64,000 bases of DNA, taken from contig NC_135187.1 of assembly GCF_041146795.1 (NCBI RefSeq), positions 17,002,556 through 17,066,555 of the forward strand, in the 5' to 3' direction. The translations under genes were made by a program, and so were the position numbers. Below the pieces are notes generated by a model, which was not told the DNA's origin, did no database searches, and saw only the letters and a program-made list of their open reading frames with translations. This document shows, in pieces, positions 20,618-28,234 of this stretch (the first letter of the stretch is position 1; every line of letters begins with the position of its first letter). This DNA comes from Maylandia zebra (lineage: Eukaryota; Chordata; Actinopteri; Cichliformes; Cichlidae).

Positions 20618-23600
20618 TCATCGGGCATCGAATACAACCACTGAAATCAGAGAGTCAAGGAAATCCACAGCAAACGTAGCAACCAATTCATAAAATATCA
20701 ATCAAAATCAAAATATCTGAACACTCTTTAGCAAAAAGACTCACATCTGAAATAAACAAGTCAACTGGTCATTTTTAATGTTTTCACAAGTTGTCTTCAT
20801 GCACACAAAGTCAAAAGGATACATCTCTTTGTTCTCTTCTTGTACATGATCCTGTAGCCACACTCTCTGCATCTGATCGGATCGCGGGCTTTGATTTCGT
20901 TCTCGGTGTGACATTCTGCAAGTGACGAGAGAAAACATGGTGTTATGTGGTCAAGTTCAGTTTGAGCAGAGCAGAGCAGCGGGCAACACCCCCTCACATA
21001 GTTTTTCTGCTGATGTTAATGACAGAGAAAGTTTGGACCTATGCAGCTACTGAGTCAGCAGAGTGTTGGTAACTTTTATTCACTTAGCGCACGCCTCTGA
21101 ATTCAAAGAGGTGTGGCCCAACATTTAGTCCATAATGTGTAAGATGTATTCATTTCAGTTCATTCAGATTGTTACTGAGTTTTTACACCTTGCCAAAAAA
21201 CTTATTAGAACTAAAATCAGGGTGGTTCTTTTTCCAGATGCAAGATGACCAACATTACGTAATCATGGTGAAATAATTATTATTGGTTCCAAAATAGTAA
21301 CATTGTATCAGACTGTAAAGGAGGTTTAATATTTCCCACTGTAAACATCTAGTGAGCCTAATGTGTATGTTATGTCCTCCAGATGTCTCCACCACAGTGG
21401 ATTAAGTAGTAAAGACACTATTCAAACACAAGAACATCATGTAACTCTCAGTTAGTACTTGTGTTTTGCACCTGGAAGCACAAATACCCACAAGGTAAAA
21501 AAAAAAGAAAAAGAAAATCATCATACATACATACAGAACAATACAATCAACTTATCCCAAGCTAACTATGATTAAAACAGAGATTAGAAAAGGAGTAGGG
21601 GTCATGAGGCTATAAAGGCACCTGAGATGTAATTTCAGTGAACGGAAATTCCACACATGCCAGGTATCACAGCTTTGAATGCACAGACCGGTTTACAATA
21701 GGCAAGTTTTGGGCTCCAAGTGTTAATTAGTACCAATACTGAACTCATATTTATAATTACAGACGGTAGTTATGCGAATTTTCATGTATTAGGTAAAACA
21801 GGACATGATATAGTGTGCTAGACGGTTTTCTCTAAAAACTAGTGTTGTAATACCTGGAAAAATACACTCTTAGCGATCTCTGAAGCATTAACTACGGATT
21901 AATCCTTAATTTATTAATGTCGGAGAGGCTAGTTATACACTCTAAATTGACTGGTGTCAAGCCAGCCTCCAATTCGAGACTTGCAGTCAAGCCAGCCTCC
22001 AGTTGATTTTACGTTCCCTGTGTTTTCAAAGTATTACGGGAATGGATGTGGAAACCAGATTTCAAAATAAAAGCCAACTTCGAGTGAATTAACAGATATG
22101 TTAAGAACATAATAACATATAATTTAGGCTTTTTTTTTTTTAGAAACTCTAATGTTACATCTACATGACACAGCCTTGTACCCTAATTGTGCCCTGTCAA
22201 GGCCATCTTATTTTGGATTTCAAAGTAAAAGCCCTGTGAATCTTCATTTTTGAACTACTCTTTCAATGAATTCATAATGCTCTTAAAAGCAAAAGTCGTA
22301 TTTCCAAATACTATTTGAACTTTGTATCAACACTTTCCAACCGCAGTCTTTTTCACAGTAATACCATATCAAATAAATTCTTTCTGATTTTGCTTTTCAT
22401 AGTAATGGCCCTTTGAAATTGCCGATATTTGACTTAATCTTCTAACGATTCAAAATGCTCTAAAATGGAAAATTCCTGTTTCCACAGGGTAATTCCACCT
22501 TAGATCAACAGTATACAACCCCACAGTGATACCATATCAATATCAAGTCATTCTGATTTTGCTTTCAAAAATAAAAGCCCTTTCAAATTGTCCATAATTG
22601 ACCTAACTTTCAGTGATTTCAAAATGCTCTAAAATGAAAAATTCTTGTTTCCACAGGGTAATTCCACCTTAGATCAACAGTATACAACCCCACAGTGACA
22701 CCATATCAATATCAAGTCATTCTGATTATGCCTTCCAAAATAAAAGACTTTTCAAATTGTCCATAGTTGACCTACCTTTCAGTGATTTCAAAATGCTCTT
22801 AAATAGAATTTTGCTGTTTCCACAGGGTAATTCCACTTTAGATCAACAGTATACAACCCCACGGTGATACCATATCAATATCAAGTCATTCTGATTTTGC
22901 TTTTCATAGTAATGGCCCTTTGAAATTGCCGATATTTGACTTAATCTTCTAACGATTCAAAATGCTCTAAAATGAAAAATTCTTGTTTCCACAGGGTAAT
23001 TCCACCTTAGATCAACAGTATACAACCTCACAGTGATACCATATCAATATCAAGTCATTCTGATTTTGCTTTCAAAAATAAAAGCCCTTTCAAATTGTCC
23101 ACAATTGACCTAACTTTCTGTGATTTCAAAATGCTCTAAAATGAAAAATTCTTGTTTCCACAGGGTAATTCCACTTTAGATCAATAGTATACAACCTCAC
23201 AGTGATACCATATCAATATCAAGTCATTCTGATTTTGCTTTCAAAAATAAAAGCCCTTTCAAATTGTCCATAATTGACCTAACTTTCAGTGATTTCAAAA
23301 TGCTCTAAAATGAAAAATTCTTGTTTCCACAGGGTAATTCCACCTTAGATCAACAGTATACAACCCCACAGTGACACCATATCAATATCAAGTCATTCTG
23401 ATTATGCCTTCCAAAATAAAAGACTTTTCAAATTGTCCATAGTTGACCTACCTTTCAGTGATTTCAAAATGCTCTTAAATAGAATTTTGCTGTTTCCACA
23501 GGGTAATTCCACTTTAGATCAACAGTATACAACCCCACGGTGATACCATATCAATATCAAGTCATTCTGATTTTGCTTTCAAAAATAAAAGCCTTTTTAA

Positions 23601-26600: not shown

Positions 26601-28234
26601 AAGTTAGGTAAATTATGGGCATTTTCAACAGGCCATTATTTTGGAAGGCATAATCAGAATTACTTGAAATTGATATGGTAACATCGTGAGGTTGTATACT
26701 GTTGACCTAAAGTGAAATTATCCTGTGGAAACAGCAATTTTCACTTTTAGAGCATTTTGAAATCACTGAAAGTTAGGTCAATTGTGGACAATTTGAAAGG
26801 GCTTTTATTTTTGAAAGCAAAATCAGAATGACTTGATATTGATATGGTATCACTGTGGGGCTGTATACTGTAAATACAGAGTGGAATTATCCTGTGGAAA
26901 CAAGAATTTTTCATTTTAGAGCATTTTGAAATCACTGAAAGTTAGGTCAATTGTGGACAATTTGAAAGGGCTTTTATTTTTGAAAACAAAATCAGAATGA
27001 CTTGATATTGATATGGTATCACTGCGGGGTTGTATACTGTTGATCTAAGGTGGAATTACCCTGTGGAAACAAGAATTTTTCATTTTAGAGCATTTTGAAT
27101 CGTTAGAAGATTAAGTCAAATATCGGCAATTTCAAAGGGCCATTACTATGAAAAGCAAAATCAGAATGTCTTGATATTGATATGGTAACATCGTGAGGTT
27201 GTATACTGTTGATCTAAAGTGGAATTACCCTGTGGAAACAGGAATTTTCCATTTTAGAGCATTTTGAAATCACTGAAAGGTAGGTCAATTATGGACAATT
27301 TGAAAAGGCTTTTATTTTTGAAAGCAAAATCAGAATGACTTGATATTGATATGGTATCACTGCGGGGTTGTATACTGTTGATCTAAAGTGGAATTACCCT
27401 GTGGAAACAAGAATTTTTCATTTTAGAGCATTTTGAATCGTTAGGAGATTAAGTCAAATATCGGCAATTTCAAAGGGCCATTACTATGAAAAGCAAAATC
27501 AGAAAGAATTTATTTGATATGGTATTACTGTGAAAAAGACTGCGGTTGGAAAGTGTTGATACAAAGTTCAAATAGTATTTGGAAATACGACTTTTGCTTT
27601 TAAGAGCATTATGAATTCATTGAAAGAGTAGTTCAAAAATGAAGATTCACAGGGCTTTTACTTTGAAATCCAAAATAAGATGGCCTTGATAGTGACAGGG
27701 CACAATTAGGGTACAAGGCTGTGTCATGTAGATGTAACATTAGAGTTTCTAAAAAAAAAAAAAAAAGCCTAAATTATATGTTATTATGTTCTTAACATAT
27801 CTGTTAATTCACTCGAAGTTGGCTTTTATTTTGAAATCCGGTTTCCACATCCATTCCCGTAATACTTTGAATACACAGGGAACGTAAAATCAACTGGAGG
27901 CTGGCTTGACTGCAAGTCTCGAATTGGAGGCTGGCTTGACACAAGTCTAAATTGAGCTGTAATTTATTATTTGTCAACTTATTATGAGAGAATTGTTACT
28001 ATGAAGGAACACATTATGAACAATATGTAAGGTCTATGCGGTGTAATGTAAGAAAAACATCCAGAGGAGAAGCAGCCGTGATGGCAGTGATGAAAGGTTT
28101 GCATTAGAGCAGGTAAAATCGTACTGTTTGCATTACCAGCGGTGGTATTACTAAAGTAAACGTTGTAACATACCTCCACATATGTAGATCATAGGCTGCT
28201 GCTTGGGCGGCTGTAGATCTTTCTGCGTATCCAT
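20618..28234 (-). CDS. POLR2K: POLR2K, RNA polymerase I/II/III subunit RPABC4 (RPB12)
   Basis: Three exons: 28234-28174 ([20 protein letters not shown]), 20915-20823 and 20640-20618. Lengths 61, 93 and 23 nt give 177 nt, exactly 58 codons plus TGA, the normal vertebrate length. The middle exon encodes [20 protein letters not shown] and the tiny last exon restores the conserved C-terminus LVVFDAR. Reading through the second donor instead gives a wrong tail (CILLTLCA), which is why the 23-nt exon was sought. Two CX2C pairs (ICGEC and CREC) form the single zinc site. The protein is a shared core subunit that bridges the two large subunits' platform in all three nuclear polymerases. Intron 1 is 7.26 kb, mostly the fold-back element at 21951-27945. 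The gene is transcribed away from STK3 from a shared promoter region. Confidence 0.98.
21941..21950 (+). repeat. Left target-site duplication of the fold-back element
   Basis: TCTAAATTGA directly precedes the left terminus and is identical to the ten bases directly after the right terminus. Confidence 0.85.
22205..25870 (+). repeat. Left-arm tandem array, 169-bp unit, about 21 copies
   Basis: The anchor TCCACAGGGTAATTCCA recurs at 22481, 22650, 22819, 22988 and 23157, always 169 bp apart, and later as diverged forms (TCCACAGGATAATT). Each unit contains a run like CAACAGTATACAACC and TCAAGTCATTCTGATT. Outer and inner units are the most diverged while the middle is homogenised. A five-unit (845-bp) higher-order copy is visible: the unit starting at 22819 recurs at 23664 with more than 400 identical bases following. 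Confidence 0.92.
25594..26498. repeat. Central perfect palindrome, 433-bp arms, 39-bp loop
   Basis: Positions 25594-26026 read as the reverse complement of 26066-26498 with constant coordinate sum 52092, so no indels. All stretches I compared were identical. The 60-codon open frames at 25792-25974 (-) and 26118-26300 (+) are mirror images of one another for this reason and are not genes. Confidence 0.9.
26210..27665 (-). repeat. Right-arm tandem array, 169-bp unit, about 8 copies
   Basis: This is the same unit as in the left arm in reverse orientation, for example GGAATTACCCTGTGGAAACA near 27051 and 27220. The array is about 13 units shorter than the left one. The outermost divergent unit (with CTGCGGTTGGAAAG) pairs with the outermost left unit. 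Confidence 0.9.
27946..27955 (+). repeat. Right target-site duplication of the fold-back element
   Basis: TCTAAATTGA, identical to 21941-21950. Confidence 0.85.

What the first reader, a model, noticed from the sequence alone, without database searches (positions are those of the whole stretch)
21941..27955. A 6.0 kb fold-back transposon with satellite-like arms inside POLR2K intron 1
The element has near-identical inverted termini, arms built almost wholly of a 169-bp tandem repeat, a short loop, no coding capacity and a perfect 10-bp direct duplication (TCTAAATTGA) immediately outside both ends. These together show that it transposed as a unit, and was not simply a satellite inverted in place. 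Its subterminal doublet GTCAAGCCAGCCTCC may be a transposase binding site. The host intron belongs to an essential polymerase gene, so the transcript has to cope with a multi-kilobase hairpin.
Basis: partly seen in the sequence, partly recalled or inferred. Interest (0 to 1): 0.85.

Follow-up and report, generated by a model that had tools for sequence, protein, structure and literature searches.

The report
Recently mobile fold-back transposon family
A 6-kb jumping piece of DNA, shaped like a giant hairpin and built from satellite-like repeats, has recently landed inside a polymerase gene, probably of a fish; the same genome holds sister copies and larger relatives that carry a likely enzyme for moving it.

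Summary
Window 21950-27946 (5,997 bp) is a non-autonomous fold-back DNA transposon in the first coding intron of POLR2K. Its arms hold about 20 and 7 units of 169 bp around a 39-base loop.

One correction: the target duplication is 8 bp (CTAAATTG), not 10. Sister copies begin ACT[G/T]GTGTCAAGCC; the two extra bases are the element's terminal A and T matching the flanks.

It is one of a family: 117 terminus matches genome-wide, 0 for the reversed control. Of 22 two-ended copies, 13 have a perfect 8-bp duplication and 18 match at 7 of 8 or better. One sister's joined flanks match 40 of 40 scored uninterrupted repeats; the window copy has a diverged uninterrupted counterpart. Its ends show no substitutions against ends of some sister copies, so it moved recently.

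Larger elements with the same termini carry a transposase-like gene. It has no significant Pfam match; I read it as DDE-type and Mutator-like, unproven. Similar fold-back elements are known (Tetris, Tm1, Galileo), and Atlantic cod has a palindromic element with 167-169-bp repeats in its arms, annotated as hAT. So this is a new family of a known kind.

The parts
21950..27946 (.). whole fold-back element, 5,997 bp, ACTGG... at the left end and ACTTG... (read inward) at the right end
21942..21949 (+). left target-site duplication CTAAATTG (8 bp)
   Evidence: paralogous empty site
27947..27954 (+). right target-site duplication CTAAATTG (8 bp)
21950..22477 (+). left outer terminal inverted repeat; diverged copies of the 169-bp unit begin at about 22195
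27409..27946 (-). right outer terminal inverted repeat, 521 of 527 aligned bases identical to the left
21956..22000 (+). left terminal doublet GTCAAGCCAGCCTCC (21956-21970 and 21986-22000, 30 bp apart), putative transposase site
27896..27940 (-). right terminal doublet (27896-27910 and 27926-27940)
22478..25868 (+). left arm: 20 strong 169-bp units; holds exact internal duplications at offsets 676 and 845 bp (4 and 5 units)
26224..27408 (-). right arm: 7 strong 169-bp units in inverted orientation
25594..26498 (.). inner palindrome, 433 exact bases per arm, around the 39-base loop 26027-26065
20916..28173 (-). host: first coding intron of POLR2K (7,258 bp), most of which is the element

Best explanation
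This is a non-autonomous fold-back DNA transposon that moved recently as one unit. Shown: shared termini, 8-bp duplications at insertion sites, paralogous empty sites, ends without substitutions against some sister copies, and larger relatives with the same ends that carry a transposase-like gene. Inferred: that transposase, supplied in trans, binds the terminal doublet, cuts both ends and joins the DNA at 8-bp staggered cuts (cut and paste). Inferred from anatomy: the arms arose by amplification of a subterminal sequence and by duplication of one satellite-bearing end in inverted orientation, and they gain and lose 169-bp units by unequal exchange or repair slippage. In POLR2K it sits in an intron and is presumably spliced out; its transcript is predicted to form a kilobase-scale hairpin.
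For: 41 matches to the first 120 bp from 40 scored of 107 candidate places; 117 matches to ACTKGTGTCAAGCCAGCC at 1 mismatch or fewer against 0 for the reversed control. Target duplication: 13 of 21 two-ended copies 8/8 and 17 of 21 at least 7/8; the C25 element adds one at 7/8. Sister empty site: 40 of 40 scored places (of 1,321 candidates) match the joined flanks over all 292 bases at 98-99%. Window copy: joined flanks align through the junction to C3:32069752-32069949 at 75%, without a gap for about 20 bases beyond it, with one CTAAATT[C/G]. The window's left end has 0 mismatches in 522 and 527 aligned bases against L012 and L011, the right end 0 in 528 against L014; gaps of 8, 3 and 2 bases remain. 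Transposase-like ORF of 371 codons inside the C1 element; its closest relatives lie in or beside same-terminus elements on C25 and C9. Satellite best matches fall in the same element for 90 of 469 units against 24.7 by shuffling.
Against: 4 of 22 two-ended copies have fewer than 7 of 8 matching bases (L015 and C6 6/8; L037 4/8; C1 4/8 in register, but 7 bp exact when shifted by one). 4 of the 32 unit clusters that I counted by eye in the listed rows have no exact terminus in the listed part. The C13 counterpart of the window's site is too diverged at the junction to show the duplication. No copy was shown to encode a complete working transposase; several C25 and C9 copies are frame-broken. The transposase has no significant Pfam match and no transposase-like PDB match. 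A similar cod element is annotated as hAT, another superfamily (PMC12368964). No movement was observed.
Confidence: 0.9

Rival explanations
1. A satellite array that was inverted and expanded in place, with a chance 10-bp direct repeat.
For: The arms are almost pure satellite and show tandem-duplication scars.
Against: Copies with near-identical ends at many places, most with their own duplication; empty sites; 28 of 32 listed unit clusters lie near an exact terminus (my count by eye).
Confidence: 0.01
2. The element is mobilised by a different, undetected transposase (for example hAT, Zisupton or P type, which also make duplications near 8 bp), and the gene in the C1, C25 and C9 elements is a passenger.
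For: 8-bp duplications fit several superfamilies; Zisupton makes 8 bp (PMC12730594, passages). A cod element of very similar build, with 167-169-bp repeats in ~600-bp arms, is annotated as hAT-derived (PMC12368964, sections 8 and 17). The gene here has no significant Pfam match, so its role is read from motifs only.
Against: The gene sits next to the satellite arm in three differently flanked groups, with 88-94% DNA identity in the longer colinear pieces; relatives keep open frames with invariant D, D and C residues (the following H is Y in the C1 copy). No hAT-type Pfam domain was found in it.
Confidence: 0.15
3. Assembly artefact (a palindrome made by a chimeric read).
For: Large palindromes are a known artefact type (recalled).
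Against: Unequal arms, a non-palindromic loop, 8-bp duplications and many copies of different length at different places.
Confidence: 0.01

Closest known systems
gadMor-hAT-1784 and -8043 of Atlantic cod (PMC12368964; abstract, sections 8 and 17 and passages read)
   Same: Fish element without ORF; palindromic, with ~600-bp inverted arms made of tandem repeats of 167-169 bp; non-autonomous; a relative keeps only the tandem repeat.
   Different: Annotated as hAT by its authors; mean lengths there 1.3-5.8 kb at inversion breakpoints; the word-string TSD does not occur in that text. Here no hAT domain was found in the partner gene.
Tetris of Drosophila virilis (PMC4079207; passages read)
   Same: Non-autonomous; long inverted termini made of a flanking part plus ~220-bp tandem repeats and an inner part; 8-10 bp duplications; repeats resemble part of the flanking terminus; repeat number varies, with unequal exchange proposed.
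   Different: Fly; other sequence and unit length. There the transposase-bearing element was not found; here same-terminus elements with a transposase-like gene were.
Tm1 Mutator/Foldback family of root-knot nematodes (PMC3169594; passages read)
   Same: [quoted passage not shown] one terminal motif at one end and another at the other; a same-terminus relative encodes a putative transposase.
   Different: Repeats of about 14 bp, mostly 9-bp duplications, Phantom-like transposase, smaller elements.
Rehavkus and Mutator-like elements (PMC6446971; passages read)
   Same: A minisatellite before one terminus in Rehavkus; duplications of 8-11 bp in MULEs; zinc finger plus DDE layout.
   Different: Rehavkus: 9-bp duplication and PHD finger, arthropods and annelids. 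The protein here does not match the Pfam MULE model. That paper thinks the vertebrate MuDR entries of Repbase misidentified; the Muta1 paper lists fish among MULE hosts.
Muta1 of Aedes aegypti (PMC5225508; abstract and passages read)
   Same: 8- or 9-bp duplications; long terminus with a subterminal tandem motif; first two catalytic D 69 residues apart, against 76 here.
   Different: Autonomous element; no satellite arms described in the passages seen.
Galileo of Drosophila (PMC3688188 and PMC3573991; titles and starts of abstracts in listings only)
   Same: Long, internally repetitive fold-back-like termini with multiple transposase binding sites.
   Different: P-superfamily transposase with THAP domain; none was found here.

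Membership tests
Fold-back DNA transposon (structural class) | long inverted termini that contain tandem repeats and can fold back | tested here: met
   predicted RNA fold -0.62 kcal/mol per nt, 3,688 of 5,997 bases paired across the centre, one control stretch -0.27
Fold-back DNA transposon (structural class) | insertion as a unit with a target-site duplication | tested here: met
   13 of 21 8/8 and 17 of 21 at least 7/8; empty sites
Fold-back DNA transposon (structural class) | multiple dispersed copies | tested here: met
   117 terminus matches against 0 in the reversed control
Mutator-like (MULE) superfamily | transposase recognised by the MULE profile (PF10551) | tested here: not met
   no PF10551 hit at E<=10 for the 339-aa protein or three relatives; the genome has 24 other PF10551 hits, none at these loci
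Mutator-like (MULE) superfamily | DDE catalytic layout with a C/H motif after the second D and an N-terminal zinc finger | tested here: inconclusive
   D203, D279 and C325 invariant in 4 of 4; the H three residues on is present in 3 of 4 (Y in the C1 copy); C/H-rich N-terminal segment by eye; the E was not located
Mutator-like (MULE) superfamily | target duplication of 8-11 bp | tested here: met
   8 bp; range from PMC6446971
Zisupton / KDZ | 8-bp duplication | tested here: met
   Zisupton value from PMC12730594
Zisupton / KDZ | partner transposase recognised by a KDZ profile | tested here: not met
   no such hit in the Pfam scans; that Pfam holds a KDZ model is recalled
P superfamily (Galileo-like) | partner transposase with THAP domain | tested here: not met
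   no such Pfam hit
hAT (as the similar cod element is annotated) | 8-bp duplication | tested here: met
   that hAT usually makes 8 bp is stated in PMC12730594
hAT (as the similar cod element is annotated) | partner transposase recognised by a hAT profile | tested here: not met
   no such Pfam hit; the termini begin AC, not CA (the CA rule is recalled)
gadMor-hAT-1784 (Atlantic cod) | sequence similarity of termini and repeat unit | not testable with these tools
   the cod consensus is not in the text that I could read

The most novel reading that the evidence does not exclude
The partner gene belongs to a DDE transposase lineage that no Pfam model covers, either a deeply diverged Mutator relative or a separate group, and it drives a fold-back family that turns its own subterminal DNA into a spreading satellite. 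The cod inversion-breakpoint elements now called hAT could belong to the same system.
Probability: 0.35. Interest if true: 0.65.

Novelty: new member of a known kind. Interest (0 to 1): 0.5.

Why it matters
It gives one assembly in which non-autonomous fold-back copies with near-identical ends, larger elements with a candidate transposase, and satellite units can be compared. Seven sister copies whose ends match the window's at 99% or better (ungapped columns) carry 7 to 23 full-length units per arm, so repeat gain and loss can be followed over short times. That is a direct handle on how transposons seed satellite DNA. Very similar palindromic elements were proposed to have caused large chromosome inversions in Atlantic cod (PMC12368964), where no transposase was identified; a partner gene found here gives a lead to test there. 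It is also a natural test of how an intron copes with a kilobase hairpin.

Tried and rejected
Rejected: a 10-bp duplication. The 21 two-ended copies all have A before CTKGTG, and no copy's exact duplication exceeds 8 bp. Rejected: chance or in-place inversion. Rejected: the lone viral-contig match to a 19-base terminus pattern (L001); the sequence around it is unrelated by eye. Rejected: the one bacterial relative of the transposase (L045, 22% identity); the locus holds ordinary bacterial genes by eye. No relative in viral contigs. Other PDB matches were weak: mL40 and mainly ribosomal S17 proteins; ignored. Weak Pfam hits below cut-off, taken as chance: DUF5633 and three for one relative. Rfam and tRNA scans of the window found nothing. 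Pfam on ten window ORFs found one unrelated domain. The 31.6-kb pair on C9 was first taken for one element; the same flank appears at both ends, so it looks like an inverted duplication of one insertion, and it is not counted.

No cichlid element of this kind was seen among the listed papers (25 of 27 listed; 12 of 24; 15 of 283; 12 of 147); most were seen as titles and starts of abstracts only, and Repbase was not available. Because of the cod paper I lowered the best explanation from 0.93 to 0.90 and raised the other-transposase rival from 0.10 to 0.15.
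Full report
What is there. The window holds a 5,997-bp element at 21950-27946. Its two outer ~530-bp ends are inverted copies with 521 of 527 aligned bases identical. Between them lie two arrays of a 169-bp unit in opposite orientation (20.8 and 7.8 copies), an inner palindrome of 433 exact bases per arm, and a 39-base loop. Diverged copies of the unit reach into the outer ends (22195-22476 and 27411-27738), so the satellite looks as if it was made from the element's own subterminal DNA. 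The left arm carries exact internal duplications at offsets of 676 and 845 bp (4 and 5 units). The right arm has a hybrid unit: R26563 begins like L25189 and ends like L25530 (my reading). Both are marks of unequal exchange or slippage.

Host gene. POLR2K lies on the minus strand. Exon 1 ends at 28174 and exon 2 begins at 20915, with GT and AG at the intron ends. The exon-2 peptide matches the Pfam 7-kDa polymerase subunit family and solved RPB12 chains. The element fills most of the 7,258-bp intron. In the sense orientation its RNA is predicted to fold at -3,723 kcal/mol (-0.62 per nt), with 3,688 of 5,997 bases paired across the centre; one stretch of the same length elsewhere in the window gives -0.27 per nt.

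It is mobile. The genome (962 Mb, 63 contigs) gave 41 matches to the first 120 bp from 40 scored of 107 candidate places (a lower bound) and 117 matches to ACTKGTGTCAAGCCAGCC at 1 mismatch or fewer, against 0 for the reversed control (only part of the places is listed). I fetched 28 stretches around termini. Of these, 18 held both ends of an element. With the window copy and the C1 and C6 elements, whose remaining parts were fetched later, that makes 21 two-ended copies. All 21 begin with A before CTKGTG. In 13 of 21 the 8 bp outside both ends are identical, and in 17 of 21 at least 7 of 8 are. The weaker four are L015 and C6 (6/8), L037 (4/8) and C1 (4/8 in register, but 7 bp exact when shifted by one). 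A 22nd element, C25:2211208-2229132, has AGTGCAGC and AATGCAGC, 7 of 8. The eight other single-ended stretches were dropped from the count.

The duplication is 8 bp. The C3 counterpart reads TCTAAATTCAG, so the outer T and A look native, and the element's own terminal A and T match them by chance.

Empty sites. The joined flanks of L026 match 40 of 40 scored places (of 1,321 candidates) of a dispersed repeat over all 292 bases at 98-99% identity. Those of L018 align through the junction to a diverged copy (167 of 239 bases) whose sequence looks like a LINE reverse transcriptase (my reading). Of 19 joined flanks compared with the fetched loci, these two gave a match elsewhere that spans the junction. 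For the window copy, the joined flanks match its own two halves and nine diverged places; C3:32069752-32069949 (75%) and C13:18171301-18171473 (73%) run about 40 bases past the insertion point. The C13 copy has TTTAAATATGG at the site and is too diverged there to show the duplication. So the element landed in an old repeat inside the intron.

It is recent. The window's left end has no mismatch in 522 and 527 aligned bases against one end each of L012 and L011, and its right end none in 528 against one end of L014; gaps of 8, 3 and 2 bases remain. By first-listed best match on ungapped columns, 44 of 48 ends match an end of the same type (ACTGG with ACTGG, ACTTG with ACTTG); the exceptions are both ends of L015, L021 and one end of L031 (my count; ties not resolved). 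In 18 of 21 copies one end is ACTGG and the other ACTTG; three have ACTGG at both. Full-length unit counts in the two-ended stretches range from 4 to 41 per copy. Of 469 units, 90 have their best match in the same element (182 if ties count) against 24.7 expected by shuffling (maximum 40 in 200), yet mean identity within and between elements is almost equal (0.828-0.831 against 0.823). Local exchange is therefore real but partial.

The candidate transposase. The 14.4-kb C1 element with the same termini has a 371-codon open frame at C1:11049558-11050670, minus strand. Its close relatives (67-93% identity in the main rows) lie on C25 and C9, in or beside stretches that begin with the same terminus, some 13-20 kb away from it. 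The C25 and C9 stretches match C1 colinearly next to the satellite arm, with 88-94% DNA identity in the longer pieces outside the satellite. By shared flanks, the three C25 and the three C9 loci look like segmental copies of one insertion each, so I count three groups. One short fragment at 71% (C3:17030535) lies about 20 kb from a terminus. More distant rows (27-53%) were found elsewhere, and three were read. The four aligned proteins share ...Y[FL]DATGSI......TCDHTTASVTYFL......CDGS... and ...ILH.CLS..MKNAK...; D203, D279 and C325 are invariant, and the H of CLSH is Y in the C1 copy. I read this as a DDE transposase with Mutator-like order (in Muta1: D214, D283, H307, E419). This is an inference: Pfam gives no MULE, KDZ, hAT, THAP or other transposase match, and the 24 MULE-profile hits of the genome lie elsewhere. 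The glutamate was not placed. Several copies are frame-broken; whether any is functional is not shown.

The doublet. GTCAAGCCAGCCTCC, at 2 mismatches or fewer, starts at positions 7 and 37 of the terminus in 47 of 48 ends and at 7, 37 and 67 in the last. In the 12 ends outside C1 that were compared with the window's left end, the first 50 bases show at most one change, only in ends of the ACTTG type, while bases 51-82 carry 2-3 changes; the two C1 ends carry more in both parts. Copies were found partly through this sequence, so its constancy is biased upward. A binding site is the natural reading, not a result.

How it probably works. The C1/C25-type elements supply a transposase that recognises the terminal doublet and inserts at 8-bp staggered cuts. 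C1 has a satellite arm at one end only. The C25 element has satellite units at its left end and, at its right end, the subterminal arm sequence with one diverged partial unit in the 651 bases fetched. The window type has only arms. A plausible path is inverted duplication of the satellite-bearing end with loss of the gene. The steps from sequence to movement are inferred.

Place among known things. The nearest match in print that I saw is gadMor-hAT-1784 of Atlantic cod: a palindromic element without ORFs, whose ~600-bp inverted arms consist of 167-169-bp tandem repeats, found at inversion breakpoints and annotated as hAT (PMC12368964, sections 8 and 17). Its sequence could not be compared here. 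The text string TSD does not occur in that paper, and it reports no transposase copy for it. Tetris, Tm1, Galileo and Rehavkus share other parts of the anatomy. What this case adds is whole elements with duplications and empty sites, and a candidate partner gene that does not look like hAT.

Noticed in passing
G000:C6:44831646-44849635 (L038, L024): A sister element of 18.0 kb whose interior holds a roughly 1.5-kb tandem repeat, 7.0 and 2.0 copies, plus 50-bp repeats: a second satellite inside the same family.
   Followed up: partly
G000:C1:11039645-11054021 (L039, L040): The 14.4-kb transposase-bearing element also holds an AIG1/GIMAP-like GTPase fragment and LINE-like ORF pieces (my reading), perhaps captured or nested DNA.
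   Followed up: no
G000:C33:1.819M, C33:9.004M, C2:11.219M, C2:13.218M: 169-bp unit clusters without an exact terminus in the listed matches; they may be older copies or free satellite.
   Followed up: no
window 41702-43234 (-): A 510-codon open frame with coiled-coil-like sequence (by eye) and no Pfam match, near short tandem repeats at 43273-43346.
   Followed up: no
window 48510-49034 (-): A 174-codon frame that looks like a Penelope-type reverse transcriptase fragment (by eye); no Pfam match.
   Followed up: no
L016, right end: One copy has three instead of two doublet motifs at its right terminus, so the terminus itself can expand by a 30-bp step.
   Followed up: partly
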